This document shows, one piece after another, positions 2,462 to 63,571 of a stretch of 64,000 bases of DNA. The DNA comes from Allacma fusca. Its lineage: Eukaryota; Arthropoda; Collembola; Symphypleona; Sminthuridae. The translations under genes and the position numbers were made by a program. The stretch's first letter is position 1; each line of letters opens with the position of its first letter. The stretch spans positions 48,556,847 to 48,620,846 of the forward strand of contig OX359248.1 in the NCBI GenBank assembly GCA_947179485.1, given 5' to 3'. The notes below the pieces were generated by a model. The model saw only the letters and a list, made by a program, of their open reading frames with translations, was not told the DNA's origin and made no database searches.

Positions 2462-4277
2462 AAGTTGTTTCCCTGCCCGAAGCTTCAGACAATTTCTCAG
2501 GACTGTCCAAGCACAAATCCCCGAATGACTGACCCAAATATAGCAGACTAGCATGGCCACAGCTCTTATTCGATAACTTATTTATTACTTCAACTGTGTG
2601 CTGCTACACTTGTGGAAAGACTCACAGTTGACTTTTAGTGGCACGAGTAAAGCCAATCTTTCCAACATTGAGTTCAGATTTCTTGAATGCAACGTCAAGC
2701 GTCCTTAACAAATGTAAGACATTAATTGTTAATTAACGTCTCCCAGGTCGGAGTGCATCGTTAGAAAAACCAGAGCAAAAATCTGTCCCATTGGTGCGTT
2801 CGCTCAAAATTATCTGTACGAGTGGTGCCCCCAAAGTAAACATATTTGCAACGTCAATGGGTATCACACGATACTTAATATTCATTACTTCGCATGACGT
2901 CTAAGGTTTAATTTCAGTACTAAAAATAGTTTCACAGCTGCTAAGTATTTGTCCTTACTTCAGTACAATGTGAAAAAAAAATACAAGAAGTAATTTTATA
3001 TTTCATAATTAGGATCCTTGGAATATACGCGTTGATAAGATTTTTTCCAGTGAAAACATATTACACATAATTATCTACACGTACCGGTGCACTCTGGCTC
3101 ACTATAATGGTAATTGTAATAATGGACAACACAGATCTTCACTTAAATTCTGCGAACCATATTAACTTTCAGTTTCCAAGGCCAAAACTGAGCTGGAATG
3201 TGTAAAAATGTTTTAAACAGGTTGGACACAAAGACAGTACGTAATAATTAAACAGGGTAAAAACGTTTGCAAAGTGCCCCAGGATCACGTTTTAGAAACA
3301 TGGCGCACGTGGGTATTTTTATTTAGCATCAACTCAGCCGCCTTCGTGAATACAAATTCAAAAATATGGGTATGAAAAATAATGATTGTTTAGAAACCTC
3401 TGCACCATAGTGTTGATAGTTAGGAAGGAAGGAGATTGTAATGATACGCATTGAAATAGAGCTTGTGTATAGGCTAAATAACGTGATCCCATTTGTGGTC
3501 AAGTAATAATGACGGCTTTTAAGCATTCAATGAGATCACTCACTTCTCTGTAGTTATGCACTATTGATTGACTCAAAGGGTTGAATTGCAAATTACAATG
3601 TACATAATAGGGATTTTACGTCCTCCCAGAAGTACGCTGACTGTACTTGAGTGAGACAGTTCTACGAACTTGATGATGATGAGTAGGTGCCGTCTTGGCT
3701 GTATTTTTGAACCGCAATTTATTATTTATGCTTCCTCAACCAGTCTTGTAGCTGCTCAGGCTGAGACAACAAATTCTCTTGTCAAAATTTATTACTCTCA
3801 TGCTCATAGTACAGTCAAGTCAATCCGTAGATATTGATAGAGCATGTTCCTATATTTCTAGCAGCCAGACTAGTGCTCCCCAAACCCTTCCTTCATTGCA
3901 CCAAACGTTCTTGCAGTCTTCCCGCAGCTCTTACTCGTGTCAGTGGAATACCAAAGTGAGATCCGTGCCATAATTTATTTCCAGTAATTGATTGTACCCT
4001 GGATGTGAGACTGCGAATGGAAAACTTGTTGAGGCTTAAAATTAAATATTTTTTCTACTGTGGTTAAGGTGAGTGCTAATTTTTCTCCTTTTAATTGTAA
4101 ACTTTTCCCGTGCAGTTACTATAATTGACTCTGAAATCTACATATGTATTCTTACACTACTACTATTCTTGTACTTTGTAATAATTGTGTGGTGTTAATT
4201 AACAATCAATCACTTTTTCCCCTATTGAAATGTGCGCAGAAAGACAAGTTTTATAACTCCTCCAGGGATTTTCCAAG
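2462..4277. other. Intergenic, no gene recognised
   Basis: AT-rich DNA between the tRNA and the small Cys-rich gene. Only short open frames of 60-65 codons without domain signal or splice support are present. The last part, from about 4050, may carry the 5' leader of the downstream gene. Confidence 0.5.
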
Positions 4278-6659: not shown

Positions 6660-8889
6660 AGCGAGTATTTATCCCTTGACTTTTACTTGCACATTCAACT
6701 GAAATTGGATCCCTCAAAACAAAAAATATTGCTGACTTTTCCAATACTGGAAGATAACGTTGGTATTATTTGTCATGGAACTTTTTACGCAGTTGGTTGA
6801 AAGATCTCTTCGCATGTTATCCTGCAAGAGGCTCACACTGGAATAAACAGGAGGGAGAGAATGTGCGTGGATTTTATGTGCACGCACAATCCGTATAAAA
6901 AACTATTCCACGGAGAAGTTTCCTGCGTAAGTGCGTAATTTATTTCTACAGTCATTCCTATGCCCTCTTACAATCAGGATATTCTGTATTCCGCTTGGAG
7001 TCTTTTGCCTGCAGGGAAGCTATTACATTTACAAACGTACATAAGTATGTGGGCTCAGTAGAGTGTGTGTGTAGTCTATTGCGTGACATTATGCGAGAAA
7101 ATTAATGGCATAATATTACTCTCCAATTAGGGATCATGTGTATTCATTGTGAACTTGACAAACAGCAATGTCATTATTGCCGTACCGACTGCTGGAAGTT
7201 CATTGACAGAGGAGAGCGAAACAAGCAAGGGCATGTGTCCCTTACTGAAATATTATATAATTTTATGCTCATTTACCAAAGCGTGCTTAAGTTTAGACAA
7301 TTGTTTAAATTACAATTGCCAATTTCCTGCTAGGTTTTGCGATGTTGACCAATAAAAATGTTCTAATGGATTCTGGAAGGAAATGTTTGTTCAGATGTTC
7401 AGTAACCTGCTCCGCAATTTATTCATGAGAGGAAATCGATCGTTTACTTTTAGTTTCAAATACATGCATTTAGATAAGGGATAGAGGAAACCTGGGATTC
7501 AAATCTTCTCAAACATTTGTATTTCAACTCAGAATTTGTGCTTAAATCAGATAAAATTATTTTACATGACGCAAGTGCAAGTGTGTAATCCGATATGATT
7601 TTTCATATTCAGACGTAACAGCGCAAACTATTAAGAAAAAATAATGGGTATTATTCCGATTACGTAAGGACTCTGAAATAAGAAACGTCTACTATTTTCT
7701 GTAGTATAAATTATAATGTTGCAACTCGTCACTTATGTGCTGGCAACATATTCCAGGAGCGGGCTTGTCGAATAACACTCGGTTGAACATTGCAATGCAA
7801 CCCGAAACGCAGACAAGTGTGTAGGAAAAAGTTAGTACATTTGAAAGGACAGCTTTAAAATTAAAATATAATATTAAGTAAATTATATTTTAGTATTAGG
7901 AATGTAATTATTACCAAGAGAGTTTGTCGTTTGGCAATTACCTGATTTTGGATATCTTGGGCTGGGGAAATTTGGGAAGGGGCTTGTACCTGAAATGCAG
8001 TGAAGTAAATAATAAGAATATTGTATTGTGGTTGGAGGTGATCAGATCAAAAAAATTTTTGATTTTTCCATCCCTGACCTCAAAAACTCACAGAGAAGCA
8101 AAGAAAGTGCAGGTCAAATTCAGGGATCCTGAAAAGTATTTTGCACATATCAAATTTATATCTATTTAAAAAAATAATTTTGATACATGTAACAAATTTA
8201 AAGGGCTTTCAAACAAGTGCAATAATACAATAATGTGTTTAGTAAATACTTACAGGAGGAAAAAGTATGACACAAGGTGTTGCCACAAAATGATAAAGTA
8301 GCATCAAAATCGAAAAATACATAAATCGAATTAAATTGTATCAGCACTTCAATGATTGATTCGTTTTTTAAAATGTAGGCAACTTTTGACCTCTTTGAAA
8401 GCCAGTAACATGATCTGACCCTAAAGAATGATAATGATATCCTTTTCCTCAAACTTCTCATAACGAACCAAAACATATTGTTTTTCCGATGCACGAAAAC
8501 ATTAGATGAATAAATTTAAAAATTATAAAAGAGAAAATTCGGATTTAACATAAGTTCACGTTTATTTAATCAAAACATAGCATTGGGGTGACCCTGACTC
8601 AAAAATGAACAGTATGTTACATAATTATGTATTTTATTTTTTCTTAAACAATTTTTGCGTAAAACGAAGAATTTGATCATCAATGTAATTTTGAACATTT
8701 TGTACAATGTAAATTTAAGGAACATTGTCCATGACATTTTCAAATGAATTGACATAATATAAAGATTACTATGCAGTATTTTATGAATCTGCCTAAAGTT
8801 CCTCTCAAATAAAATTGCCCATACTAATATCCCAATGTGGACATCGTCTGAAAACAAAATTTCTAATTGAATTTTGACTGGGCAAGACA
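6660..8889. other. Intergenic, no gene recognised
   Basis: AT-rich sequence holding only short open frames of biased composition. It would contain the promoter of the minus-strand membrane-protein gene at its left side. The right side borders the target-site duplication of the minisatellite element. Confidence 0.45.
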
Positions 8890-8898
8890 CACGACAAC

Positions 8899-9045
8899 CG
8901 TGTCCGGCCAACTGCCACCCCCACAACTGCCACCTCGGCCATCTGCCACTAGGCCAACTGCCCTATGACCAACTGCCACCATCTCACGAATTCGCGGCCA
9001 ACTGCCCCTAAGCCCAACTGCCTCTAGGCCAACTGCCTCATAATT
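8899..9045 (+). repeat. Left terminal inverted repeat, made of GGCCAACTGCC subrepeats
   Basis: Eight or so copies of a (T/G)GCCAACTGCC motif lie at 15-25 bp spacing. The arm is complementary to the right arm at 11069-11231. Confidence 0.75.
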
Positions 9046-9050
9046 CCTCA

Positions 9051-10945
9051 AGTTACATTACAAAATCCTATGCTCAGTCACATTATAAAGTCCTATGCTC
9101 AGTCACATGTTAAAGTCCTATGATCAGTCACATGTTAAAGTCCTATGCTCAGTAACATGTTAAAGTCCTATGCTCAGTCACATTATAAAGTCCTATGCTC
9201 AGTCACATTATAAAGTCCTATGCTCAGTCACATAATAAAGTCCTATGCTCAGTCACATGTTAAAGTCCTATGCTCAGTCACATTATAAAGTCCTATGCTC
9301 AGTCACATGTTAAAGTCCTATGCTCAGTCACATTATAAAGTCCTATGCTCAGTCATATGTTAAAGTCCTATGCTCAGTCACATGTTAAAGTCCTATGCTC
9401 AGTCACATGTTAAAGTCCTATGCTCAGTCACATTATAAAGTCTTATGCTCAGTCACATGTTAAAGTCCTATGCTCAGTCACATGTTAAAGTCCTATGCTC
9501 AGTCACATTATAAAGTCCTATGCTCAGTCACATTATAAAGTCCTATGCTCAGTCACATAATAAAGTCCTATGCTCAGTCACATAATAAAGTCCTATGCTC
9601 AGTCACATGTTAAAGTCCTATGCTCAGTCACATGTTAAAGTCCTATGCTCAGTCACATGTTAAAGTCCTATGCTCAGTCACATAATAAAGTCCTATGCTC
9701 AGTCACATAATAAAGTCCTATGCTCAGTCACATGTTAAAGTCCTATGCTCAGTCACATGTTAAAGTCCTATGCTCAGTCACATGTTAAAGTCCTATGCTC
9801 AGTCACATTATAAAGTCCTATGCTCAGTCACATGTTAAAGTCCTATGCTCAGTCACATGTTAAAGTCCTATGCTCAGTCACATTATAAAGTCCTATGCTC
9901 AGTCACATGTTAAAGTCCTATGCTCAGTCACATGTTAAAGTCCTATGCTCAGTCACATTATAAAGTCCTATGCTCAGTCACATTATAAAGTCTTATGCTC
10001 AGTCACATGTTAAAGTCCTATGCTCAGTCACATGTTAAAGTCCTATGCTCAGTCACATTATAAAGTCCTATGCTCAGTCACATTATAAAGTCCTATGCTC
10101 AGTCACATAATAAAGTCCTATGCTCAGTCACATAATAAAGTCCTATGCTCAGTCACATGTTAAAGTCCTATGCTCAGTCACATGTTAAAGTCCTATGCTC
10201 AGTCACATGTTAAAGTCCTATGCTCAGTCACATAATAAAGTCCTATGCTCAGTCACATAATAAAGTCCTATGCTCAGTCACATGTTAAAGTCCTATGCTC
10301 AGTCACATGTTAAAGTCCTATGCTCAGTCACATGTTAAAGTCCTATGCTCAGTCACATTATAAAGTCCTATGCTCAGTCACATGTTAAAGTCCTATGCTC
10401 AGTCACATGTTAAAGTCCTATGCTCAGTCACATTATAAAGTCCTATGCTCAGTCACATGTTAAAGTCCTATGCTCAGTCACATGTTAAAGTCCTATGCTC
10501 AGTCACATTATAAAGTCCTATGCTCAGTCATATGTTAAAGTCCTATGCTCAGTCACATGTTAAAGTCCTATGCTCAGTCACATTATAAAGTCCTATGCTC
10601 AGTCACATGTTAAAGTCCTATGCTCAGTCACATTATAAAGTCCTATGCTCAGTCATATGTAAAGTCCTATGCTCAGTCACATTATAAAGTCCTATGCTCA
10701 GTCATATGTAAAGTCCTATGCTCAGTCACATGTTAAAGTCCTATGCTCAGTCACATGTTAAAGTCCTATGCTCAGTCACATTATAAAGTCTTATGCTCAG
10801 TCACATGTTAAAGTCCTATGCTCAGTCACATGTTAAAGTCTTATGCTCAGTCACATTATAAAGTCCTATGCTCAGTCACATTATAAAGTCCTATGCTCAG
10901 TCACATTATAAGGTCCTATGCTCAGTCACATAAAATCATATACTC
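9051..10945 (+). repeat. 25-bp minisatellite, about 75 units
   Basis: The unit AGTCACATNNTAAAGTCCTATGCTC repeats with period 25. Its variable bases after ACAT are TTAT, GTT or AAT, giving three main unit types. Counting from 9051 to 10923 gives 75 units, two of them 24 bp (ACATATGTAAAG type, near 10650 and 10705), then a degenerate final unit to 10945. A 22-unit block is duplicated: the run of unit types starting near 9416 reappears 550 bp later starting near 9966, including the rare TCTTATG variant at 9441 and 9991. Confidence 0.95.
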
Positions 10946-11068
10946 GGACTCTACCATGTGTATTAACATGGTTTTATGCCTTGTGCTTTAGCATGGGCCT
11001 CTGCCGTGTGCATTAGCAATTAGCATGGGTCTCTACCATGTCCATTAGCATGAGACTTTAACAACGAA

Positions 11069-11231
11069 AGTGGCAGTTGGTCATGGTGGCAGTAGGCCAG
11101 GAGGCAGTTGGCCAAAATTTTCAATTTGGAAGGAAGTGGCGATTGGCCTAGTGGCGGTTGGCCTAGCGGCAGTTGGCCCGGTGGCAGTTGGCCGCGGTGG
11201 CAGTTTTGTAGGTGGCAGTTGGCCTAACATC
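11069..11231 (-). repeat. Right terminal inverted repeat, made of GGCAGTTGGCC subrepeats
   Basis: Eight or so copies of G(G/A)CAGTTGGCC at 15-25 bp spacing form the inverted partner of the left arm. The terminal copy ends GGCAGTTGGCCTAACATC just before the second CACGACAAC. Confidence 0.75.
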
Positions 11232-11240
11232 CACGACAAC

Positions 11241-26978: not shown

Positions 26979-27585
26979 TACGAAAATCACTTCTACAGTA
27001 ATTATTAAATTCAAATGAATAAATTATAGGCAAATTTTATATTCCAAATATTTCAAGATCATCCGTCCCTTCATTCAAGGTCAAGCCGTTAAAGTTTGGA
27101 CGTTCGTCAGACATCAAGTACATACTACATGCAGACAGACAAAATTCCATTTCACAAGCCCGAGTGCTGTAGACAGATTTTTTTCCTAACTGCATGGACA
27201 ATGCTAGATAACAGCCGCAGTCAGAATAATGGGCTAGGATTTATTTGTTACCAGAAGTGGATGTTCCTTCAAGGTTTTGATATCAAAGCTGAAAGTCATT
27301 CTACAAACAATGCGCTAATTTTGTATTATGATGTAATTATAGTGAGCACTCCCGAGGGATTGCATAAACAGATTGTACGTACAGGAGAGCTTTCAGTCCT
27401 CAAATTCTTTCGTTAGAATATCTCCAGTTCGTCAGTAGGATTCAATTAATCTTGTGTTACTATTCCATTATTACATTCTTTCTTTCTAATCCGCTGAGGA
27501 ATAATTATTTAGTTTTGAATCTTTACAAACTGATTTCCCAAAACTGTGATATCGAAATCTTCAGCTGGAGCCCACATACGAGGAC

Positions 27586-27999
27586 ATGTCAGCAGAACAA
27601 TCCTGTTTGGAGCAGAGAGCTCTGGAGACAAGGAACAAAGATCTAGTGAGACAAGCTTGGCAAGAATGCTACGGAGATCATAACATCGAGGCCGTGGAGA
27701 AGTACTTCCATCAAGATATAATTGAGCACAATCCCTTGGGAGCAGATGGTATAGAGGGACAGAGGCAGTTTGCAAGAGATTGGGGCAAAGGCAGAGAAAA
27801 GGAAACAATTGATATCCGACGGATTTCAGCTGAAGGGGATTTGGTATGGGTTCACGTCAAAATAAAAGGTCCTGACGGGAAAGATTTAGCAATAATGGAT
27901 ACTTTTCGGGTTGAGAATGGGAAAATCGTCGAGCATTGGGATGTCATCCAGCCTATTCCAGATTTGACCGAAAGCAAGAATCCCCATCCCATGTTTTAA
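27586..27999 (+). CDS. SnoaL-like / NTF2-fold protein, intronless
   Basis: A single-exon protein of 137 residues. It opens with a helical region (ALETRNKDLVRQAWQECYGD), then the SnoaL-like signature YFHQDIIEHNPLGADG with family-typical Asn-Pro, a central strand region (DLVWVHVKIKGPDGKDLAIMDTFRVENGKIVEHWDVIQPIP), and a short tail ending NPHPMF. The F/YR-x-E-x-GKI-x-EHWDVIQP motif is characteristic of the SnoaL-like polyketide-cyclase/NTF2 superfamily, widespread in bacteria and fungi. These cone-shaped α+β folds bind small hydrophobic ligands or act as hydrolases/isomerases; the substrate cannot be told here. The length fits the family (about 120-150). The absence of introns, next to a seven-exon neighbour, makes a microbial origin worth testing. 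The start is the first in-frame ATG. Confidence 0.85.
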   Translation: MSAEQSCLEQRALETRNKDLVRQAWQECYGDHNIEAVEKYFHQDIIEHNPLGADGIEGQRQFARDWGKGREKETIDIRRISAEGDLVWVHVKIKGPDGKDLAIMDTFRVENGKIVEHWDVIQPIPDLTESKNPHPMF

Positions 28000-33595: not shown

Positions 33596-36025
33596 TCATT
33601 CAGATGCACCCGCTCTGCTTACTACTAAAATCATTGTGCCTATAGACAACAACCAAGAAACATGTGAATACATGCTTGGTCCTGAACATTTTGTAAAATC
33701 GTCAGACGGAGGATAAAAAAGTTCACATCTACATGTAAGGCCTGGAGTAACCCCGTCTGTTGTACAATCAGCATGGTCCAAACACTCTTCTTTACTCTGG
33801 CAGGGTTCGTAAACTTTAAGGGCACACTCTTGATTTTGATTTCTCATAACGAATCTGGGACTGCACATGCAGATACTGTTCTCAACGCAGAGTGAATTTG
33901 CTATACAATCGTCTGTTACATTACATGAATAATTTATCAGTCGGCTACATTTTGCACCAGCTCGTTCGCTTTTGTATCCACTGTTACACGAGCAATACGA
34001 GCTTACACACGATGAAAACAGCGTTATACAATCGTCATCGCTTCCGCAAGAACCACCAACCAAGGATCCAGCACGAGTTGTTGGATTCTGTGTTGTTGTC
34101 ACGGTATCAGGAGTGCTAGTTGCATCAGTAGTATCGGCAGTGGTGGTACCACTAGTATCGGGTGTGGCAGTTGTTGTTGTGTAAGGATTCGTTGTAGTAG
34201 TAGTATCGGGAGTCGCAGTTGTAGTAGTATCGGGAGTCACAGTTGTAGTAGTATCGGGAGTCACAGTTGTAGTAGTATCGGGAGTCACAGTTGAAGTAGT
34301 ATCGAGAGTGGTTGTAGTAGTAGTTTCAGGGGTGGTTGTTGTTGTTGTAGTAGTTTCTGGACTGGTTGTTGTAGTAGTAGTTTCTGGACTGGTTGTTGTA
34401 GTAGTAGTTTCTGGACTGGTTGTTGTAGTAGTAGTTTCTGGACTGGTTGTTGTAGTAGTAGTAGTTTCGGGACTGGTTGTTGTAGTAGTTTCAGGACTGG
34501 TTGTTGTAGTAGTAGTTTCGGGACTGGTTGTTGTAGTAGTAGTTTCGGAACTGGTTGTTGTAGTAGTAGTTTCTGGACTGGTTGTTGTAGTAGTAGTAGT
34601 TTCGGGACTGGTTGTTGTAGTAGTTTCAGGACTGGTTGTTGTAGTAGTAGTTTCGGGACTGGTTGTAGTAGTAGTAGTTTCGGAACTGGTTGTTGTAGTA
34701 GTAGTTTCGGGACTGGTTGTTGTAGTAGTAGTTTCGGGACTGGTTGTTGTAGTAGTAGTTTCGGAACTGGTTGTTGTAGTAGTGGTTTCGGGACTGGTTG
34801 TTGTAGTAGTAGTTTCGGAACTGGTTGTTGTAGTAGTGGTTTCAGGACTTGTTGTTGTTGTAGTAGTTTCGGGACTGGTTGTTGTAGTAGTAGTTTCGGG
34901 ACTGGTTGTTGTAGTAGTAGTTTCGGGACTTGTTGTTGTAGTAGTAGTTTCAGGACTGGTTGTTGTAGTAGTAGTTTCGGGACTGGTTGTTGTAGTAGTA
35001 GTTTCTGGACTGGTTGTTGTAGTAGTAGTAGTTTCGGGACTGGTTGTTGTAGTAGTTTCAGGACTGGTTGTTGTAGTAGTAGTTTCGGGACTGGTTGTTG
35101 TAGTAGTAGTTTCGGAACTGGTTGTTGTAGTAGAGGTTTCAGGACTTCTTGTTGTTGTTGTAGTAGTTTCGGGACTGGTTGTTGTAGTAGTAGTTTCGGG
35201 ACTGGTTGTTGTAGTAGTAGTTTTGGGACTGGTTGTTGTAGTAGTAGTTTCGGGACTGGTTGTTGTAGTAGTAGTTTCGGGACTGGTTGTTGTAGTAGTA
35301 GTTTCAGGACTTGTTGTTGTAGTAGTAGTTTCGGGACTGGTTGTTGTAGTAGTAGTTTCTGGACTGGTTGTTGTAGTAGTAGTAGTTTCGGGACTGGTTG
35401 TTGTAGTAGTAGTTTCAGGACTTGTTGTTGTAGTAGTAGTTTCAGGACTTGTTGTTGTAGTAGTAGTTTCGGGACTGGTTGTTGTAGTAGTAGTTTCGGG
35501 ACTGGTTGTTGTAGTAGTAGTTTCGGGACTGGTTGTTGTAGTAGTAGTTGCGGGACTGGTTGTTGTAGTAGTAGTTTCGGGACTGGTTGTTGTAGTAGTA
35601 GTTGCAGGACTAGTTGTTGTAGTAGTAGTTTCAGGACTGGTTGTTGTAGTAGTGGTTTGCTCATCTTCAAAGGCCCTTTTACCGCGACTAGCTGAAACTT
35701 TCTCACATATTCCAAATACAGAATAACGCGTTATTGGTATGCATTCGGTACCAACCACGCAGGTTCTCATAAGGCTGGGTGTTGTCAATGATCTTGTATA
35801 GCAGACTGTACCAATCCGGCCAACACAAGTGTCTTCCTCAGAGTTGTAAATCATAGATTCGGAGTCGGGACAAGTACAAACATTATGTGTGCTGCAGGTA
35901 ATCATCCCGGAACGTGAGTCACATTTTCCTTCGACTCCGCAAGCTGACCCATACTTCTGTGAGACACACTGAGAGACTTGAAGAGCAGCAATTAGGCAAA
36001 GAAGAAGTGCCGTGATTATCCTCAT
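33596..36025 (-). CDS. EB-module surface protein with long Thr-rich mucin repeat
   Basis: About 809 residues, starting MRIITALLLCLIAALQVSQC (signal peptide). An in-frame ATG 33 bp upstream lies beyond a TTTCAG acceptor, so the start chosen is the one after the acceptor, as in the paralogue at 62559. Residues about 20-115 are a Cys-rich domain (YGSACGVEGKCDSRSG, VCTCPDSESMIY, CYTRSL). Then come about 50 copies of TTTTTTSPE, then degenerate TPDTTTT repeats. The C-terminal half-domain holds three EB-type modules (CGSDDDC, CSCNSGY; CNVTDDC, CMCSPRF; CQSKEEC, CRCELFYPP). It ends with a hydrophobic stretch (WLLSIGTMILVVS), suggesting a membrane or GPI anchor. The Thr block should be heavily O-glycosylated, giving an extended stalk between two Cys-rich heads. 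The function is unknown; EB modules occur in invertebrate extracellular proteins. Confidence 0.85.
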   Translation of the reverse strand: MRIITALLLCLIAALQVSQCVSQKYGSACGVEGKCDSRSGMITCSTHNVCTCPDSESMIYNSEEDTCVGRIGTVCYTRSLTTPSLMRTCVVGTECIPITRYSVFGICEKVSASRGKRAFEDEQTTTTTTSPETTTTTTSPATTTTTTSPETTTTTTSPATTTTTTSPETTTTTTSPETTTTTTSPETTTTTTSPETTTTTTSPETTTTTTSPETTTTTTTSPETTTTTTSPETTTTTTSPETTTTTTSPETTTTTTSPETTTTTTSPKTTTTTTSPETTTTTTSPETTTTTTRSPETSTTTTSSETTTTTTSPETTTTTTSPETTTTTSPETTTTTTTSPETTTTTTSPETTTTTTSPETTTTTTSPETTTTTTSPETTTTTTSPETTTTTTSPETTTTTTSSETTTTTTSPETTTTTTSSETTTTTTSPETTTTTTSPETTTTTTSSETTTTTTSPETTTTTTSPETTTTTSPETTTTTTTSPETTTTTTSSETTTTTTSPETTTTTTSPETTTTTSPETTTTTTTSPETTTTTTSPETTTTTTSPETTTTTTSPETTTTTTTTPETTTTTTLDTTSTVTPDTTTTVTPDTTTTVTPDTTTTATPDTTTTTNPYTTTTATPDTSGTTTADTTDATSTPDTVTTTQNPTTRAGSLVGGSCGSDDDCITLFSSCVSSYCSCNSGYKSERAGAKCSRLINYSCNVTDDCIANSLCVENSICMCSPRFVMRNQNQECALKVYEPCQSKEECLDHADCTTDGVTPGLTCRCELFYPPSDDFTKCSGPSMYSHVSWLLSIGTMILVVSRAGASE
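34320..35660 (-). repeat. Coding minisatellite, 27-bp unit, about 50 copies
   Basis: The unit read on the coding strand is ACT ACT ACT ACA ACA ACC AGT CCC GAA (TTTTTTSPE), with the order of Thr codons nearly fixed. Variants change the last codons (SPA, SPK, SSE) or lose or gain whole Thr codons (24 and 30 bp units), so the frame is never broken. A pair of one short and one long unit (five Thr, then seven Thr) occurs three times, indicating higher-order duplication. Confidence 0.95.
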
Positions 36026-36059
36026 TTTGCTGAAATCATCATTATATTTCATTATCAAA

Positions 36060-38560
36060 TGATTAATATTTATAGTTTTTTGATCTAGTATACAGTAAGT
36101 TACAGTATTTATTTACACACTGAAAAATCGCTGAGTAGAGAAAATATGAGTCGATAGGAGTAACTAGTTTTATTTGCTATCGTTTAAATTTTAGTTGCGG
36201 TGATTTTCTTGATTTTTACATGAAAAGCTCATAAACGTTTTTGCGAGATTGCTGGAGAACGTGTTTTGAAAAACCATTATTATAGTACCAATAAGGGTTT
36301 ATTTTAAAAGCCATTAAATGCCTTTGCTGTGCTTTACTACTTTAATCCCTATGACCAGATTTATTGACAGGTGAATCAAAAAAATTAAATCTTGAAGGTA
36401 ATATCCCATCTAACTACATAGATATTTCAATATGTTTTGTCATTGTCCTGTATTTGCGCTGAGAAAACAAAAATTTCTCAATGTACACTGTGCTCTTCTC
36501 ATAGTGCACTCTAGAGGACAATCGTGACACATTAACGTTTTCCTTCATGTTAATATGCCTTCTTATAATAACCCTTGATTATGCTACGAGCCAATTTTGT
36601 TTCCTTTAAAGGGTACTGTTGTACTTGGTACATAACAGGCGAGTGCCAAAAGTATTCTTGTCTCGACTCTATTCAATAGAAAGGGGACGGGGGAAAATAT
36701 TTCGGGAACATGTAGTTACTTTAGAGTGAAGACACCAATGTATGTTCAACACAACGCTAAATCTAAAATTGTATTAGTTTCATTCATACAGCTATATAGG
36801 AAATAGGAAATCATCATCTAACTTCTAGCATTTTGTGAAATACTTTGGACTATGGACTACTATTACTATGGACTCAGTTGTCAAAATTTATTGGTAAGCA
36901 CATCCAAAGCCATTTAAGTAATATTCTAATTTGTTAGGAATCCTACAAATAGGACACACTAAAGGAATGTGCTATTTTATACTATGTTATGTATAATCCG
37001 GGCACTTAGCATGGTATTCTGTGACTTACACTGTTTGACCTACAACGTATTGTAAAATATCACAGTATGCTACAACTAAAAGAAATGTATACCTTTGTCT
37101 TGAGTGTAAATCCGGCACACGAGTACGAACGTTGTAATTAAAACGGGTCTAAAATACTGAACAGGCTTATTTAATGTTACTCCAGGTCTTGCAATTAGCT
37201 TTACTGACTTGATGCATTGACAAACCGGGCATTTTATACTAGTCTCATTTCCAAAGATCGGATTATCCCCTTATCTGCAAAACATGTTCGCTTTAATCCT
37301 CATTTTTGCATATGTATGTTTTATCAGTTAGTATTGCAAATATAACTAATAAATATTATTGTCGGTGCAATTTTTTAATACTTGGAACTAGTTCAGAACT
37401 GGTGCATACAAATCGTAAATAATTCGAGGGTAATATGAAATCATACATTGCAAGAACTTTTGCATTTAATTTTGAATTATATACTCTTTATCATTATCTA
37501 CTGGCGTTTTCTATTCCACGTTTAACTATATAATTATTCCGCTATAACCATATCATCATCATAATACTTCCACACGTATTGGGGATTAGAAGCCGGACCA
37601 CACTGTATTCTCGGGAAAAATTCCAGATAAAAATTTCGTAGGGTTTTCGCAAATATCTGGATAAATGACGTCAACTGCCAGAAGCGTATTTTAATTCCTA
37701 CTTTACTACAAAACAGTAGTCGGAGTCAAAACAGTTTACAAGTCAAGGACGTGTAATTCTCCGGAAAAAAGTATTGTTTGGAAGTGAGCTTATCTTCAGT
37801 ACGATCTGTAAACATAACAAACATTGACTAACAAGCAAAGTCTTCCGATGTAAACTGCAGAACTAAATGAAAATTGGTGGAATTGTAGACACTACTAATA
37901 GTGTTCACACAAACCACAAACTTCGTGCCACCTCCTCTGGGTTCGGGCAGTAGGACATCTGAAAGTTTGATTTTTTTTGAAAGTTTGACAGGGGGGAGGG
38001 ACCCTTCCTCGCTTGAATTTTTGCATGTTAAATCCCATAAGAAAAATCCATTTTCGCAACTCGAATAAAATCCAAACCAATGTTAAGACATGTCACTATA
38101 CATAAGTATATGTACAATCAGCGCTGCACGTGCTTTAGCGCGTATATACGTGTTAATATAATTACATTATTAAAGCGAAGCCCTTTTGTAAAAATTTATC
38201 ATTTTTAATTTTGTTGCCCGAAGTGCAATTCTTGCACGGTGTGTAAGAATACAGGTTTGTTACATTTGTAACACTACGGAATAATACGTGTGTAACTTTT
38301 TCATACTCGCTTCGCTCTCCATGTCACAGCCCCGCGCATAGGGGAAACCGAGGCTGTCCACAGGGAGGTCTCAATGTACCAAAAAGAGTCGCCGTGTGTG
38401 GGGTGTCAAAATATATTACGGTCAGGTCATTATTATACAAAGCTGCCAGATCCGGGTCTGGAAAAAGTTCCCTAACCTGCAAACCCGGTTAGTCGGGGAA
38501 GTGACCCGTCATAGTCGGAGATTTTAGATATCGGGGAAGTAATCAACTTTTCGAAATTTG
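36060..38560. other. Upstream region of the EB/mucin gene, no gene recognised
   Basis: An unspliced upstream region: the acceptor just before the EB ATG implies a 5' noncoding exon somewhere in here. No donor was identified with confidence. The remainder is AT-rich with short frames only. Confidence 0.4.
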
Positions 38561-40945: not shown

Positions 40946-42422
40946 CAGGGATGTCAACGATTAATAATCCCGGTTAATGATTAACGATTACTAATTATTA
41001 ATCATTAATCGTTAATTTAGTAAGCTTGGATTTTTTGAAATAATCATTAATTGTAAAAATCAATTAACCGTTTTTGAAAATCAATCATCAATTTTAATCG
41101 CCAATTATTAAATTGTAAACCATTAATCGTTAATTGTAATTGAAATTGGAAGTTTAACAAAAAGTAATTTGTAATTGTAATCGTATATGAAAATTTATCA
41201 AAAAGTAATTTGTAGTTGTAATCGTATTTGAAAATTCATCAAAATGTAATTTGTAATTGTAATCGTAACTGAAACTTTACTGAAAAGTAATTTGTAATTG
41301 TAATCGTAAATGATATTTTAGTAGAAAGTAATTTGTAATCGTAATCATCAATCACATGTTCCCCAAAGTAATCATTAATCCTGATAAATAATAGGGAATT
41401 TGAAATGGGGCTAAATTTTCTCAATAGTTTGTCTTGCCTGACGACGTTAGACTCGTTGTGGCCAAAAACTTGTACATTATTTAAACTCATTTAAATCAAC
41501 TTTTTAATACATAATTTACAATCAAAAGGTCCTGGTCACCAGTCACCACATAAAGCAATAATAATAATTATTTTGTTATATCATATTCAGTTACTACTTA
41601 CTCCAAGTTCGCAGCTTTTATTTTTTGTGGAATACAACGGTGACGAACAACATTGGTGACGAAGTCTCACAAATTGAAGCTAAGATTTTTTTAAGAATAC
41701 AAGAATATACTCCATACCATATAAAAAATACGGGTAACGTCTCACCGCCCGCAACGATTGCTTTGCTCTGTTAAACGATTAACTAAAGCAACAAGTAACA
41801 AATTTTTAAAAAGTCAATTTTAATTTTCAAATAAAAATTTTATAAAAAGGCAATCATTAGTTGTAATCAAACATTTAATAATTTTCTAAAAGGTAATAAT
41901 AAGTTGTGATCGACAACTAAATAATTTTTTAGAAGATATCTGTTAATTATAATAGAAAATTAAACATTTTTTAAAAAAATAATCGATGAAAATAATTTTT
42001 AAAGCAAACGTTAATTGTAATCATCAATGACAATTATTTTTAAAGTAATCGTTAATTGTAATCAGTGACAATTATTTTTAAAATAATCGTTAATCGTAAT
42101 CATCACTAAAAATAATCTTCAAAGTAATCGTTAAATTGTAATCATCAGTGACAATTGTTTTTAAAGTAATCGTTAATTGCAATCATCACTAAAAATTATT
42201 TTTAAAGTAATCGTTAATGGTAATTATCAATGACAATTATTTTTAAAGTAATCGTTAATTGTAATCATCAATGCAAATTATATTTAAAGTAATCGTTAAT
42301 CGTAATTATTAACTAGTAGTTACAATTCAATTAATCATCAATTGTAATTATCAATTCATTTGGTTTTTGAAGTAATCATTAATTGTAATTTGTAATCACA
42401 AAATTGGAAATTGACATTCCTG
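40946..42422. mobile_element. hAT-like non-autonomous element, 1,477 bp, AT-rich repeats inside
   Basis: The termini CAGGGATGTCAA (left) and, reverse-complemented, CAGGAATGTCAA (right) form a TIR differing at one base. The element is flanked by an exact 8-bp duplication GTATTGAC at 40938-40945 and 42423-42430. The CAGGG start and 8-bp duplication fit the hAT superfamily. The interior has no transposase. It is two blocks of degenerate ~40-bp repeats: in the left block AAAGTAATTTGTAATTGTAATCG, in the right block AAAGTAATCGTTAATTGTAATC followed by ATCA(A/C)TGACAATTATTTTT. Confidence 0.85.
40960..42370. repeat. AT-rich ~40-bp degenerate minisatellite inside the hAT-like element
   Basis: The left family (41140-41345) repeats AAAGTAATTTGTAATTGTAAT. 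The right family (41930-42300) repeats AAGTAATCGTTAATTGTAAT, roughly nine copies. Both derive from GTAAT/ATTAC words. Confidence 0.75.
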
Positions 42423-46040: not shown

Positions 46041-46845
46041 TTTAAAGAATCTGATAAGTGTCAAAATTATTATGTTCATTTAGACTTTAAGGATAAAAAT
46101 CTGAAGCAACAAATCTGAAACTGATATTCTTATTCTGATTTGAATTATGACATCAGGTTTTGCATTTACACTCCTCGTGTTTGGTGAATTCGAAATCAGA
46201 TTCTGATTCGTCCTAGTCTAAAACCGGTATGACTTCCCTGTCCCTCCTTATTCCGGAGTGCCTGCTCCTGTATTATATTTATATGGGACGCCTTGGTTGG
46301 CGCCTCATACAAAACACACGTACATTTTAAAATTCTCTCAAAAGTTTTACATAATTTCGGAAAATACGGAGTCACAAGCTAGTATTTCAATAGTTTTTTG
46401 ACTAACCATTATTTAATTAAGCTTCTCGCGACACAATACTCTCTTTTTCCTGTTCCTTCTGGACGTTGTGTGCTTAAAATAAATAAAGTGAAACTACTGG
46501 ACACTGGACTCGGTGTGCTAACAACCCCTCGCCGAAAATTGGACACACTACTTCTCTCAAAAACAACGCGAGGCTGTCGGGAACCTACTTGAGAAACCTT
46601 TAAAAACGCCCGGAAGCACCAGGCTATATATTGGCAAATTATATTTGGCATATAAAGCAAAGGTTGGAGGTGTTTTCCGGGCACATTCTCAGGCGAGTTA
46701 CTTTCTACCTTGTAAAGGTTCACTTAATCCGTTGATACATAATAGAAGTAACAACTATTTTGGACAGTGGTACTGTCACCGAAATTTATTTTAACTCAGG
46801 TACTGTTAAGTCGTCGTGAGATTTGAGAAACTATTGGAAGCGGTA
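46041..46845. other. Probable 5' leader of LINE 1 and unassigned DNA
   Basis: No gene seen. From about 46400 on, GC content rises (CTCGCCGAAAATTGGACAC; AACGCGAGGCTGTCGGG), suggesting LINE 5' untranslated sequence, but the 5' end of the element was not located and no target-site duplication was found. Confidence 0.4.
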
Positions 46846-47613
46846 ATGTCATCGCCCGATCATTCCGACCGTATGGATAAAATTATGGAGAAATTGGAGG
46901 CTATGGATAAAAAACTCACAAAACTGGACGAAGTCATCACCTCGATTAACAAAATCAATTCCGCCGTGCGCTCACTAAACAAGAAAACTGAATCATTAGA
47001 CACGAAAGTGAAGAAGCAAGAAGAGGAGATAAAGACGCTGAAAAGTTCAATCCGTCAGATCAACAACAACCAAATATTCCTCTCTACACCGGATAGGAAC
47101 CAAAATCTCATAGTGAAAGGTATACCAGCCCCCACTCGACCAAGTCAAAACAGCGCAAAATCAATGATTAAAGGAGAACTACTTCCAAAGTTATGCAAGT
47201 CCACAGATGACGAACAAGAAACCGCAAAATGGTTCGATGCGGAAATCATCTCCACGAACATCCCAAATAGCTCACAATCTGCAACTAGGGTTTTGTACAA
47301 ACTGAAATTCAAATCCATGCGCTATCTCAGAAGTTTCCGATCAAAGTGGGTAGGATTAAAGAATACAAAAATATCGGTGTCAGATGACCTGAATAAGACG
47401 CAACGTGAAATTCTTTCATGCCTACTGAAGAAACGGAAGGAGCTTAAAGAGAAGAACACAAAAAGCTTTATTTATGCTAATAGATATCTCATCGTCAAAA
47501 ATGATTCATCGGTGGACACATTTTTTGAATCCGATGGTACCCAAATCTTCGAAATCGTCAGCATTCCAAATTTTAAACCCCGGGGCAATAGTCACCAACT
47601 ACCACAGCAATAG
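46846..47613 (+). CDS. LINE 1 ORF1 (coiled-coil nucleic-acid-binding type)
   Basis: An intact frame of about 255 residues from the ATG at 46846 to a TAG at 47611. Residues about 10-75 are heptad-rich (MDKIMEKLEAMDKKLTKLDE, KTESLDTKVKKQEEEIKTLK), a trimerising-type coiled coil. A basic globular part follows (LYKLKFKSMRYLRSFRSKW, LLKKRKELKEKNTKSFIYAN), as in ORF1 proteins that coat LINE RNA. Frame and stop position are notable: ORF2 continues in the same frame right after the TAG. Confidence 0.75.
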   Translation: MSSPDHSDRMDKIMEKLEAMDKKLTKLDEVITSINKINSAVRSLNKKTESLDTKVKKQEEEIKTLKSSIRQINNNQIFLSTPDRNQNLIVKGIPAPTRPSQNSAKSMIKGELLPKLCKSTDDEQETAKWFDAEIISTNIPNSSQSATRVLYKLKFKSMRYLRSFRSKWVGLKNTKISVSDDLNKTQREILSCLLKKRKELKEKNTKSFIYANRYLIVKNDSSVDTFFESDGTQIFEIVSIPNFKPRGNSHQLPQQ

Positions 47614-50600
47614 AGGCCAGGCGAACCCATATCTACACAACCAACTACTTGTAAAATAACATATTGGAACTGCAACGGCATTTGTAACTTTTTTAATTTA
47701 AATAAGTCTGACAAGGAATTAATTCTCAATTATGATATAATATGTCTGTCCGAAACCTGGAGTACACTCATTAATTATGATTGTAGCAATATTTCAGAAC
47801 TTTCAAAATTTCAAATTTATGTAAATCCAGCAGTTAAAACTGCGCAAATGGGTAGACAAAGTGGAGGACTGTGTATTTTGTCTAGCAAAGCTTTTACGAA
47901 GTTAAAATATTTTAACACATGATTTTTTGAGTACTATAATTTTAAGGCATAACAAATCGCATAAGTTTTTGATCTTGTTGTTTTTATACTTCAAACCAGG
48001 GGCTCAATATAACTATTCCATGTCAAAACTCGAAGAAGTAATTGAGGAGGTTTCAATGACATATCCAGGAGAACCAATGTACATAATCGGAGATTCAAAT
48101 GCGAGAGTTGGCAACTTAAACTGGAATCACGACAACAGTAATCAGAGACTTGAAAGGGGTCGGACAAGTCTTGATCGAGTGGTGAATAGCAGTGGGAAAT
48201 ACGAATTTGAATTTCTAACAAAGTTAGATTTTTCTTTACTGAATGGTCGCTGTCAAAGTGACTCCCCCGCAAACTTTACATATGTCACGCACAATGGGGC
48301 TAGTGTAATCGACTTATTTTGGTCCAACACTGTCGGATTACAATTAGTATATGATCTGAAGCCAATTCCGGTTACACTCTCCCCGCATTTTCCTATGATC
48401 TGAGCGTGGATGACCTGAATCTCGCAATTACTGAAGTCGTAAAAACAGCGGCCATTAAATGTGATATGGTAAAATCAGTCTACATTGGGAAATACAACTA
48501 TGGCAATAATAAACCCTGGTACGACCATGATTGCAGAAGGTCTCACAGTAACGTTCTAAATAAGCTAACGTATGTACGCAAAAATAACTACAACAAAGTT
48601 CAGCTATGAGAGTACCATGAAGCCAGACAATGTCACTCGGACATTATCAAAAATAAAAGGAGAGGATATTTTGATCACCTTAGAAAATGTCTCCGCAACG
48701 CCAACTCAACTAGTATTTTTTGGAAAACGTTTAATTTATTCAAGTCCCGTAAGAGCAATGAGAACCCTATCAATGTAGAGTCATGCCATAACTTCTACTT
48801 TGAAGTTATGCCTGCTAAATCTCTCGAAATTATTTTCGAAAATAGTTTCTCAAAAGTCGATGATCGGCTGGATGCGGAAATCACTTTTTCTGAATTAGAG
48901 TATGTCATTAAGTCGCTGCAGACTAATAAAACCCCGGGTACAGATGGTATAAGCAACGAATTCTGGAAGCATGCAACCTCAGATCTTTGCACCCGCTTAC
49001 TTTCTCTCTTTAATAGTGTTTTTACCTCTGGGCTGACACCCAAAATCTGGTCAGAAATTGAAATGTGCATGCTACACAAAAAGGGTGATAAGTCTCTCCC
49101 ATCAAACTATAGGGGTATTGCATTAATTAATACAATTACCAAAATGTTTACTAATGTCCTTTTTAACAGGCTATACCCATGGTGTGAAACTAGAAACGTA
49201 CTCCCTGAATCGCAAGCTGGCTTTCGGAAATACCGAGGCTGTAGAGACCAACTTTTCACTCTTTTGGCAATTATCCAGACAAAGTTAAGCAGACCGGGTG
49301 GGAAACTTTGTGCACTATTTGTCGACTTAGCTAGGGCTTTTGATTCCCTAAACCACAATCGCATGTGGAGAAAGCTAGACGCTTTTGGCGTGAGCGGAAA
49401 AATGATTAGAGTTCTCAAGTCCCTGTATGATAATGCTATTGTAAAAATCAGGGTGGGAAAGGTTTACACGAACCCCATTGACGTATCTCAAGGAGTTTTA
49501 CAAGGCGACGTACTAAGCCCTCTGCTGTTTGCTATCTATATATCTGATCTTGATGGTTTTAGGGAAAACAATGGAGCGACCCCGGTTTCCATGGGTTTGC
49601 AAAGCTCCATAAACCAGTTGCTCTTAGCAGACGATAACGTCACCCTAGCCGAATCAAAGCAAACTTTGCAGGCCAAAATCAATATTTTGGAGGAATATTG
49701 TAAGAATAATTACTTGAGCATCAACCTATCCAAAACTAAAATAATAATCTTTCGCAACGGTGGCAGAATTTTAAAAAATTGGGTCTGGTTTCTAAAAGGA
49801 TCTGTAGTGGAAATTGTTTCGGAATATACGTATCTGGGTGTGACTTTCTCATCATTTGGATCTTTCAGACGCGCATGTAAAGAAATGTCACGAAAATCTA
49901 TTGCTACTATTAGGCCCACTCTAAAAATACTAGGAACGTCTAAATGCGACTCTTGGGCCTCCAAAATGAAGCTATAAGACTCCGTAGGTATCCCCACAAT
50001 GACATACGGAGCTGAAATATGGGCTTTCGCATTACATGATGAGATTGAAATTGTTCAAAATCAATTTCTGAAAAAGTTACTCTGGCTCCCAAATGATACT
50101 CCCTCGTATGCACTTCGGGTTGAAACCGGCAGAGTTAGGATATTCTATAGGGTAATTGGATGGGCGCTAAAATATTGGTTGTCGATTCTATTAATGTCAA
50201 ACACAAGGTTGGTAAGGTTATGTTATGAAAGGCTAAAATTTGTTGGACGAAACTTACCGTTGTACAAACGCAAACCTCTATGGGCCAATTTTATTCGAGA
50301 CATTTTATTCAAGTATGGGTTTGCTTCGGTTTGGGAATTTCAGTCCGCCGAATATTTGTCGGGATTTTTCAAAGTAATAATGGCCGCTGTTTTTGACTCT
50401 TTCATAGAATACGACTTTACAACGAATTCAGAAATCCTCATTCATTCATCAGTACAAACGTATTAAATGCCATTTTTCTACGTCAAATTACCTAACGTAT
50501 ATGATTCCTTTTCAATATATTCGGTTGATGGCCAAAATCAGATTATGCTCATCCACGTTATATACAATACGTACAAAATATAAACTGTCGAATAACGAAA

Positions 50601-50797
50601 TATGCCATGATTGTAACCTACAAGAACCACACGACATATTTCATATGTTTGCAAAATGTCTCATGTACTCTCTTCCTAGAAAACTACTTATAGATAAATA
50701 TCAGACCAACAACTACTTCCAAAACGAATGTACTCTGCTTCAGATATTTGTATCCCCTTCAAGTGATCTTATATGTGATATATTTAAATGTTCATAA
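47614..50797 (+). pseudogene. LINE 1 ORF2 (endonuclease + reverse transcriptase), broken
   Basis: The endonuclease begins in ORF1's frame (ITYWNCNGICNF, DIICLSETW), hits a TGA at 47920, and resumes in another frame (YIIGDSNARVGN; VIDLFWSN) up to about 48400. The RT part (48406-49977, one TGA at 48607) shows NKTPGTDGISNEFW, YRGIALINTITKMF, QAGFRKYRGCRDQ, FVDLARAFDSLNHNRMW, QGVLQGDVLSPLLFAIY. The catalytic box reads LLLADD instead of the usual YADD-type box with an aromatic residue in front. A TAA at 49975 interrupts an otherwise continuous frame, followed by YGAEIWAF and a final Cys/His motif (CHDCNLQEPHDIFHMFAKC) in yet another frame. This copy cannot be active. Confidence 0.85.
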
Positions 50798-50950
50798 CTG
50801 CTCAACAAGGAAAAATCTATTTGCTACTCTTTCTGATGTATTTTATTTTAATTTAGTCTTAGTTTTAAGTTAATTTTACTCAATGTAAGTACATTCTGCC
50901 GTTGTATATGGATGATATGGGCACCGCCCGGGGAGAATCCTTAATAAACT

Positions 50951-52446: not shown

Positions 52447-55400
52447 ACTATTATTATTATTATTATTCTTTATTCACTGTGTCAAAAAGAGTCAATATAA
52501 ATATTGGTTTTCACCCCAGACACAAAATGTCCAATCCATACAGTAGAAATACAGTCATAACAAGAGGTCCGATTCATTTGGAGCAAAAAAAATGTTTTTT
52601 AAAGAGTAATATCATTACGCTGTACCAGAATATGTTTGATAAGCAATTTTTTGAAAGTTGTAAGTAGGCAATCACGCACTTTGAGCAGACTTGGGAGATC
52701 ATTCCAAAGCCTTACGCATAAGTAAATAACATTTTTTTCTCCGATTTTTAGTTTAGTTAATGGTTGGAATAGTACAATATTATTCGCAGAACGCAGACGT
52801 CCAGTGGAAATTTTGAAGAGTATAATACCATTAATGTAATTTACACAGTGTCCATAGTGTATCAGGGAATACATAAACTTATTACCATAGAACATCAATC
52901 GTTCAGATATAGACAGAATGTTATAAGTTTCATAAATATCAGCTAGAGTGTAAGGTACACGTGTAGGTTTTATTGTATGAAGACACAGGAGAAATTTGTC
53001 CAGCTTTTGCTGGATAGCGTCCATCCTGGACTTGCAGGTACCTCCCCAAACTAATATACAATAGTCTATATGGGAGAGCACAAAGGAATTAACAAGCATT
53101 CGTTTTGTGCTGTCATTTAAGAGTCGGCGAACTCTATACACAGCACCCATCATTTTTGAGATTTTTTTAAGGACAAGGTCAGCATGGTCTTTAAAACTAA
53201 GTTTCTCATCTATTAGGATACCTAGATACTTAAAGCACCAAACTCGCTGCAATCGCTCATCATTGATAGATAATTTACAATCAGTGTCTATGTTACATGA
53301 CTTATGATATACCACATACATTGTCTTGGCTGTGCTAATAGTGAGAGCATTTTCCTGCATCCATACATTAAGCTTATTTAGCCAGACCTGCATTTTCATG
53401 AACAGAGTATTAACACATGTATCGTATATAAACAAAACGAGGTCATCTGCATAACATACGTAATCTATGGATAGCAACTTGTTGATATCTGAAAAAAACA
53501 TTATGAAGAGATATGGGCCAAGAATAGACCCCTGTGGAACACCATTGATATCTACATAGCATTTAGACACCACATTGTTGACAACAATTTTGAAAGTCCT
53601 TTTATATAAATATTCAGATAAGATCATTAAGAGTCTAGGGTCGCAATTAAAATTCTGGTTGATTTTTTGGAGCAAGAGAATTCTGGATACTGAGTTGAAG
53701 GCCTTCTTTAGATCCACAAATACCGCAAGCACCTTAACTGTTGGTATATTGAGATAGCTACACAGTTTGTGCATGAATACTAGTACTGCAGTAAAACATG
53801 ATCGGCCGCGTCTAAAACCATGTTGGTTCTCATCCAGACTTCTCTCACATTCAAATCTTAATCGATTGTAGACAATTTTCTCGAAGAGCTTATTCAAAAA
53901 GGGAGACTATGGATAGGGCGATAAGAGTCAGAACAGTACTTACTGCCTTTACCTTTATATATAGGAGTCACAGTGGCAGTTTTGAAGTAGCTTGGAAGAG
54001 TACATGTGGAAAACATTATATTGAACAAAAGTAGTATAGGCGTTACAATACTGGCTCTGGAAAATACTTCATAGTTAACAACATCATACTTATTAATTTT
54101 TCTTTTAAGTCCACGAAAGGCAGTCCAAACCTCATTGCTGTCAATATCGTTATAGTCAGAATTGCATTTTAATGAATTTTTGAATATCAAGATATCATTA
54201 TCAGTGTAGTTACAATCCACAGTAAAGGATCTTGCCAGTTCATCACAGATTTCATTATATTCAGTTAAATTAGCATTATTTACATACAGCTTCTCAATGA
54301 CTGTCCCCCCATTCCTGGAGATACCCATAACCTCATCTACTACATCCCACACAGCCCGTGGATTTGTCACATTTTTATTTAACTGAAGCTCAAAATATTT
54401 ACGTTTCGCTTCATATATATCTTTCTTGATTTTTGAGCGTAGTTGCTTAAACAAGTTCCAGTGTACAAGGGAATTATGAGTACATGCATAGCTTTTATAT
54501 TTGTCACGTAAAGTTATTTCCTTACGTATTTCTGGGCTAACCCAACACTTCGAGGAGGTTTTGACCCGCTTCACCTTTAACTCGGCAAGCTCATATAGAT
54601 GCTCACGAATTGTTGTACTTATAATATTATACACAAAGTCTATACTGTACTTTTTGTTGTTAAGAAATTCCCAATCTATTTTACAAAGCTCTGTATTGAG
54701 AGTATTCCAATCCATATGTTTGTAACTACGATACTTCATTATTTTTACAACATTAGAGGCTGATTTCTTAAAGCTATAGTCAAAGCAAATGTAGTCATGG
54801 TCAGAGATACCTGTTAAGAATGTTGACCAGTTAATACATAGTTTAGGGGTACATACAGATGGTCAATTAATGTACTAGACGATCTCTTGCCCAGTACTCT
54901 ACGAGTCTGCACATTAATGACTTGCTTAAAATTATGCATACTTAAGCTAGAGATTAGTTTCACTGTGTCTTGAGTCATACTGGATAAATCTATATTTATA
55001 TCGCCAACAATCATGTAGGGCAAATTAATTTGTGACATATTTTTAAAAAACGCATGTAAAAATAAGAAAAACTTTTCCACAGAAGCTCCTGGTGGACGAT
55101 AGATAACCAGAATAATGACGGACTGAAATTCATTTATGCCTATTTTACATGCAAGGTACTCAACCTCAGAGTTGTACATTTCAATATTCATCTCCAAAAT
55201 GTTAAACCTCATTCTCATGTAAATATAACAAAAGTCCGCCGCCTTTCTTGTGTGTGCGGTTCTTGGTAACTATATTGTATCCTTGAATAGAGTAAATTGG
55301 GATAGCAGTTTCGGATGAGAAAAATGTCTCAACACCCGCAAATACATCAATTGTCTTTTCGAACAACATATTCTTTACCTCCTCAAGTTTATGAAGTGCA

Positions 55401-57893: not shown

Positions 57894-58000
57894 GTAAGTG
57901 GTTTATTGGAAAACGACATAATAATACATGTGAGTATTTTGTTGTAAGCTAAACTGTTAACCAAAATGACAAAATTAATGTTAGATTATTTATTTCATTC
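57894..58000. other. Junction between LINE 3 and LINE 4
   Basis: About 100 bp of AT-rich sequence, probably the 3' untranslated end of LINE 3. Confidence 0.4.
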
Positions 58001-63566: not shown

Positions 63567-63571
63567 GTTTA

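What the first reader, a model, noticed from the sequence alone, without database searches (positions are those of the whole stretch)
8890..11240. A TIR element that carries a 1.9-kb, 75-unit minisatellite as its cargo
Seen: inverted ends of at least 75 bp, each built from short GGCCAACTGCC repeats, flanked by the identical 9-mer CACGACAAC and enclosing a 25-bp satellite array with no transposase. Known: 9-bp target duplications are typical of Mutator-like elements, and some DNA transposons have VNTR-built ends. Inference: a non-autonomous element disperses a satellite seed that then expands locally, a route by which a species can acquire a satellite family.
Basis: partly seen in the sequence, partly recalled or inferred. 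Interest (0 to 1): 0.8.

Follow-up and report, generated by a model that had tools for sequence, protein, structure and literature searches.

The report
Foldback Mutator-like transposon with hypervariable minisatellite
This is one copy of a jumping-DNA family in what appears to be a springtail genome, whose inverted ends contain a short tandem repeat that differs in length between otherwise near-identical copies, so the family can be used to study how such repeats grow and shrink.

Summary
Window 8899-11231 is a 2333-bp element with inverted ends of ~15-bp GGCCAACTGCC-type subrepeats, flanked by CACGACAAC. The genome (chromosome lengths match the springtail Allacma fusca) gave 40 scored close copies including this one. 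In all, 34 of 40 keep both tips: 26 have a perfect 9-bp duplication, all different, and four have 8 bp. Three related repeats without the element carry a single target.

The 25-bp array is not foreign cargo. It starts 170-171 bp inside the left tip in 28 of 34 copies, and a short inverted array of the same unit type lies inside the right end, so it is an inner domain of a foldback inverted repeat. It moves whole: a copy on another chromosome equals this one except for one exact 22-unit (550-bp) duplication. Of 31 copy pairs with identical arms, 29 differ in the length between the arms.

Two relatives carry MULE transposases: one shares the outer 35 bp but is broken; one is a 4877-bp FLYWCH-MULE element with its own 9-bp duplication and inverted 20-bp arrays. 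Best reading: a non-autonomous Phantom/Tm1-like foldback Mutator element, a known kind. 'Seed then local expansion' is only partly supported.

The parts
8890..8898 (.). left copy of the 9-bp target duplication CACGACAAC
   Evidence: sequence
8899..11231 (+). whole element, 2333 bp
   Evidence: boundaries shared by other copies
8899..8905 (+). left 7-bp tip CGTGTCC
   Evidence: same tip in L048 and, inverted, at the right end of L053
8906..9037 (+). left outer domain: ~15-bp subrepeats GGCCAACTGCCACTA
   Evidence: TRF
9062..10931 (+). inner domain, left: 25-bp minisatellite, 74.9 copies
   Evidence: TRF; unit strings
9411..10530 (+). region with the exact 22-unit (550-bp) tandem duplication; removing 550 bp gives L009 exactly
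10957..11050 (-). inner domain, right: short array of the same unit type in inverted orientation, about 3-4 units
   Evidence: TRF; I4; unit test 0 of 1000 shuffles as good
11070..11224 (-). right outer domain: ~15-bp subrepeats GTGGCAGTTGGCCAG
   Evidence: TRF
11225..11231 (-). right 7-bp tip (GATGTTA when read inward)
11232..11240 (.). right copy of the 9-bp target duplication
   Evidence: sequence

Best explanation
The stretch is a non-autonomous DNA transposon of the Mutator (MULE) superfamily with foldback architecture: asymmetric 7-bp tips, an outer inverted domain of ~15-bp subrepeats, and an inner inverted domain of 25-bp minisatellite units that is long on the left (75) and short on the right (about 3-4). 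A FLYWCH-MULE transposase made by a larger relative recognises the ends and inserts the whole element, making an 8-9 bp target duplication. Shown: copies, boundaries, target duplications, single-target relatives of three sites, transposase-bearing relatives with the same or related tips, movement of the array as a whole, and array-length differences between copies with identical arms. Inferred: that a transposase of this class moves the window family; that length changes arise by unequal exchange, slippage or template switching in gap repair; that the subrepeats are transposase binding sites.
For: 34 of 40 copies have both tips; 26 perfect 9-bp and four exact 8-bp duplications, 26 of 26 distinct, 0 of 1122 mismatched pairings identical. 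Single-target relatives: L042/L034, L029/L045 and, weaker, L017/L012. Inner arrays inverted to each other. L009 equals the window copy minus 550 bp. 29 of 31 identical-arm pairs differ in length between the arms. L048: first 35 bp identical, subrepeats, related 25-bp array, MULE domain 37.6 bits. L053/L056: 4877 bp, CCCTATAGG on both sides, FLYWCH 44.4 bits and MULE 53.9 bits in one frame, inverted 20-bp arrays, right tip CGTGTCCGG.
Against: L012 and L018 have both tips but no duplication, L020 has 7 of 9, L046 8 of 9; six of 40 lack a pair of tips. No intact transposase gene was found in an element with both window-type tips: L048 is broken and has no right end in the stretch fetched, and L053 has another left tip and an unrelated array unit. 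No transposase tree was made. The two larger DNA searches scored only 40 of 176 and 40 of 296 candidates.
Confidence: 0.88

Rival explanations
1. One reading: a transposon captured a foreign satellite seed, spreads the seed, and each landed seed then expands locally into its own array.
For: Arrays differ in length between near-identical copies; exact 22-unit duplication; 114-unit array in L032; one array locus without a left end, L059.
Against: The unit is part of the inverted repeat, with an inverted counterpart in the right end. L009 and the window copy share a 53-unit order, so long arrays travel whole. The related L048-type family also holds an array of a related unit near its left end.
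Confidence: 0.15
2. The array-length differences are assembly artefacts of tandem repeats (collapse or false expansion), so the arrays are really similar.
For: Arrays of near-identical units are hard to assemble, and the window copy and L009 differ only by one exact block.
Against: The assembly is from PacBio reads (PMC10427803, passage), and arrays of 0.1-2.9 kb are shorter than typical long reads (recalled). Different length classes also have different unit strings. Reads were not available here.
Confidence: 0.07
3. The copies were spread by segmental duplication or recombination rather than transposition.
For: L048 and L049 match over 4.87 kb at 97.7% on one chromosome; three left-tip matches on C8 lie about 39.8 kb apart; L012 and L018 have both tips and no duplication.
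Against: 26 different perfect 9-bp duplications; five sister pairs tested have unrelated flanks, 23-32% ungapped identity; single-target relatives.
Confidence: 0.02

Closest known systems
Tm1, Mutator/Foldback family of root-knot nematodes, Phantom-like transposase (PMC3169594; abstract and passages seen)
   Same: Asymmetric 7-bp tips outside the inverted part, inverted ends of 13-15 bp tandem repeats in variable number, mostly 9-bp (8-10) duplications, MITE-like and transposase-bearing members, FLYWCH plus MULE transposase.
   Different: Different tip and subrepeat sequences. The passages I saw describe no inner 25-bp inverted minisatellite domain; inner cargo there is a histone hairpin motif or the transposase.
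Tetris, foldback element of Drosophila virilis (PMC4079207; abstract, passages and one section seen)
   Same: Tandem repeats as a domain inside the inverted ends, 8-10 bp duplications, assigned to the Mutator superfamily, repeat-number change between near-identical copies by duplication, and free satellite-like arrays.
   Different: 220-bp units; three complete copies and no transposase found there. Here: 25-bp units, dozens of copies, transposase-bearing relatives; free arrays hardly shown.
Phantom (aphid members) and Rehavkus MULE groups (PMC6446971; passages and table rows); Rehavkus-1_TC with a Tribolium satellite in its ends (PMC10218199; passages)
   Same: MULE elements with 8-10 or 9-bp duplications and a minisatellite beside the transposase gene or before the 3' end; satellite units in inverted ends.
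   Different: Rehavkus has a PHD finger; L053 shows FLYWCH. Sequences were not compared.
FB of Drosophila and TU of sea urchin (recalled; one search found no open paper holding the three TU terms)
   Same: Inverted repeats built from short tandem repeats.
   Different: Not compared at the sequence level.

Membership tests
Mutator (MULE) superfamily | 8-11 bp target duplication, typically 9 | tested here: met
   26 perfect 9-bp and 4 exact 8-bp among 34 copies with both tips
Mutator (MULE) superfamily | MULE transposase encoded within the same ends | tested here: inconclusive
   Window copy codes for none. L048 shares the first 35 bp and has a broken MULE frame; L053 is complete with PF10551 but has only a related right tip
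Foldback architecture | long inverted ends composed of tandem subrepeats | tested here: met
Phantom/Tm1-type MULE | asymmetric short tips outside the inverted part | tested here: met
   CGTGTCC and GATGTTA
Phantom/Tm1-type MULE | FLYWCH finger N-terminal to the MULE domain | tested here: met
   in the relative L053 only: FLYWCH 44.4 bits at 16-72, MULE 53.9 bits at 193-284
Phantom/Tm1-type MULE | transposase falls in the Phantom clade | not tested
   no reference transposases at hand
Rehavkus | PHD finger in the transposase | tested here: not met
   Pfam scan of five L053 frames: FLYWCH and MULE in one; RING and a sub-threshold C2H2 (24.4 bits, cut-off 25.2) in others; no PHD
Satellite DNA | long tandem arrays free of the transposon | tested here: inconclusive
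   one search scored 40 of 102 candidates; five listed loci without a listed left tip; of three read, one has the end, one could not be judged, one lacks it

The most novel reading that the evidence does not exclude
Array length is edited at, or very soon after, nearly every transposition (for example by template switching inside the array during gap repair), so the family works as a minisatellite generator: transposition itself, not slow slippage afterwards, makes new array lengths, and a sister family exchanged the unit (25 bp for an unrelated 20 bp) while keeping inverted arrays at the same place.
Probability: 0.25. Interest if true: 0.65.

Novelty: new member of a known kind. Interest (0 to 1): 0.45.

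Why it matters
Dozens of independent insertions, each with its own target duplication and a readable string of unit variants, allow array duplications and losses to be counted against substitutions in the arms of the same copy. That makes it testable whether minisatellites grow during transposition or afterwards. It also ties a FLYWCH-MULE lineage to minisatellites in what appears to be a springtail. A search for Collembola with transposable elements, Mutator and terminal inverted repeats found no open-access paper; a 2026 arthropod MULE survey lists one Symphypleona element of another size (6638 bp, TIR 66; table row seen).

Tried and rejected
Phage collection: no match to the element. Intact ~880-900 aa MULE frames of this genome (L050, L051, L052): each stretch holds at most two AACTGCC or GGCAGTT words and no such end repeats, so I did not take them as partners. 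Cargo reading rejected. Segmental duplication as the main route rejected. L042 (3736 bp) looked like an autonomous copy; its interior seems to be a LINE-like insertion (by eye). The extra interior of L040 was not identified. Rehavkus rejected on the PHD finger.

Corrections made while checking: one search counted 25 perfect duplications of 36, because extrapolated starts by alignment; L010 and L043 had no real pair of tips, and L044 and L046 have internal deletions in the left arm. Searching for the tips themselves gives 34 of 40 with both tips and 26 perfect 9-bp duplications. The one search counts use the boundaries; none of the 16 copies in its identical-arm clusters is among those four.

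Limits: the right-arm genome search and the right-tip pattern search did not complete, so copies were not counted by the right end. The left-tip count (102; 100 listed, 74 of them exact) includes the L048-type family. The 31 pairs come from 16 copies in 4 clusters and are not independent; in the 7-copy cluster the measured middle includes 31-bp variant units.

Full report
Setting. The window lies on contig C12 of a 392.7-Mb genome in 91 contigs. Six large contigs (81.89, 75.61, 66.08, 58.81, 55.59, 48.06 Mb) match the published chromosomes of the springtail Allacma fusca (81.9, 75.61, 66.08, 58.81, 55.59, 48.07 Mb; span 392.8 Mb; PMC10427803, passages seen). I take that as the source; the window would be on chromosome 4.

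The observation. The inverted ends, the CACGACAAC flanks and the 75-unit, 25-bp array are present at the stated places. The end match (64 of 79) exceeds 2000 shuffles (best 39). The outermost seven bases are not inverted copies of each other.

It is a family. A search with 8880-9100 gave 433 matches from 40 scored of 176 candidate places; the 40 are the window copy and 39 others, and I fetched all 39. Looking for the tips with up to three mismatches each, 34 of 40 have both tips. Of these 34, 26 have a perfect 9-bp duplication, four (L013, L024, L034, L037) an exact 8-bp one, L046 8 of 9, L020 7 of 9, and L012 and L018 none. The six without a pair of tips are L010, L026, L031, L032, L043 and L047. 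The 26 nine-mers all differ, and 0 of 1122 mismatched pairings agree. A 17-bp left-tip pattern occurs at 102 places with at most one mismatch, the reversed control pattern at none.

Empty sites. I joined the host flanks of 25 copies with one target and searched the fetched DNA. Three gave relatives without the element: L042 against L034 (93% over 421 bp, one ATGGGGATG), L029 against L045 (69% over 366, one ATGCTAAAC), and weaker L017 against L012 (83% over 60, one AATTAATAT). These are repeats elsewhere, not alleles. None was found for the window copy.

What the array is. The first unit begins at offset 170-171 in 28 of 34 copies, at 154-155 in five, and at 124 in one. The unit of the short array inside the right end matches the main unit in inverted orientation (0 of 1000 shuffles as good; also I4). 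So the minisatellite is the inner part of a long inverted repeat: outer 15-bp domain, inner 25-bp domain, about 75 units on the left and 3-4 on the right. That is foldback anatomy rather than a transposon with foreign cargo.

How the array behaves. L009, on another chromosome with another target (CCCCATCTC) and unrelated flanks, equals the window copy exactly once 550 bp are removed; the affected region is 9411-10530. The unit strings show this as 22 units present twice in tandem. So a long array moved as a whole, and one copy then gained, or the other lost, one block. Of 31 pairs of copies with no substitution in about 334 bp of arms, 29 differ in the length between the arms; the other two pairs are identical throughout (L022/L023, L035/L038). 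The pairs come from 16 copies in four clusters and are not independent. Unit counts run from 5 to 84 in the 36 copies tokenised; L032, which lacks a right tip, has about 114.

The enzyme. PF10551 (MULE) matched at 49 places. One lies about 1.8 kb inside a left tip on the same strand. That locus, L048, starts with 35 bp identical to the window element, has AACTGCC subrepeats and a 25-bp array whose unit is related to the window's in opposite orientation. Its MULE frame of 120 aa scores 37.6 bits and the gene is broken up. By eye, a 24-bp array sits in an intron of the gene with GT and AG borders. L048 shows no right end in the stretch fetched; L049, 97.7% alike over 4.87 kb, lacks the left end and by eye has a right end. 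Other places carry L048's end and array (40 scored of 296 candidates; L054 and L055), so a second, related family also holds arrays. A third relative, L053 with L056, is complete: 4877 bp, CCCTATAGG on both sides, right end CGTGTCCGG when read inward, FLYWCH and MULE in one frame, a RING frame and a sub-threshold C2H2, and two 20-bp arrays (17.6 and 22.6 units) in inverted orientation. Its unit is unrelated to the 25-bp unit (582 to 998 of 1000 shuffles as good). What these families share is the place and inverted arrangement of the arrays, not always the unit. Which of them moves the window family is not shown.

Free arrays. A search with 150 bp of array scored 40 of 102 candidates. Comparing the listed places with the left tips by eye, I found five loci without a listed tip nearby (two of the 102 tips were not listed). 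I read the left side of three: one has a left end with a base change, one could not be judged because it reads N, one (L059) is flanked directly by other DNA. This is thin evidence for satellite birth.

Comparison. Tm1 of root-knot nematodes has the same plan: asymmetric 7-bp tips, 13-15 bp tandem units, mostly 9-bp duplications, a FLYWCH-MULE transposase resembling the Phantom subclass (PMC3169594, abstract and passages). Tetris shows repeats inside a foldback Mutator-type element feeding a satellite (PMC4079207, abstract, passages and one section). Phantom of aphids and Rehavkus carry minisatellites near the transposase gene or the 3' end (PMC6446971, passages), and a Tribolium satellite lies in the ends of Rehavkus-1_TC (PMC10218199, passages). 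The window element is a new member of this known kind. I made no transposase tree.

Verdict. Real and well bounded; the two identical pairs at different sites point to recent movement.

Noticed in passing
window 33596-36112 (-) and 62559-63581 (-): Two related Cys-rich secreted-looking frames (838 and 340 aa). The first holds a long Thr-rich TTTTTTSPE region coded by a 27-bp minisatellite of 49.6 copies (34311-35658); the second lacks it.
   Followed up: no
window 27550-27999 (+): Single open frame of 149 aa that looks like a small NTF2/SnoaL-type enzyme (resemblance recalled, not searched); could be worth a horizontal-transfer check.
   Followed up: no
window about 46800-50800, 52600-55700, 55830-57900 and 58400-61700: Several LINE-like frames with reverse-transcriptase-like sequence, some nearly intact (by eye).
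   Followed up: no
L048, reverse complement positions 2722-3047: A 24-bp minisatellite related to the element's array sits in what looks like an intron of the MULE transposase gene; the same intron of L053 is about 125 bp without an array (by eye).
   Followed up: partly
L050, L051, L052: MULE frames of about 880-900 aa without stops, from families without these end repeats; apparently young Mutator families of this genome.
   Followed up: no
G000 C8:8841437, 8881188, 8920954: Three identical left-tip matches about 39.8 kb apart, which suggests a tandem segmental duplication carrying one element.
   Followed up: no
L028, L030, L033-L036, L038, L039: Their arrays mix the 25-bp unit with a 31-bp form that has a 6-bp insertion and has itself been amplified.
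   Followed up: no
window 41131-41346 and 41978-42390: AT-rich arrays of 41-bp units.
   Followed up: no
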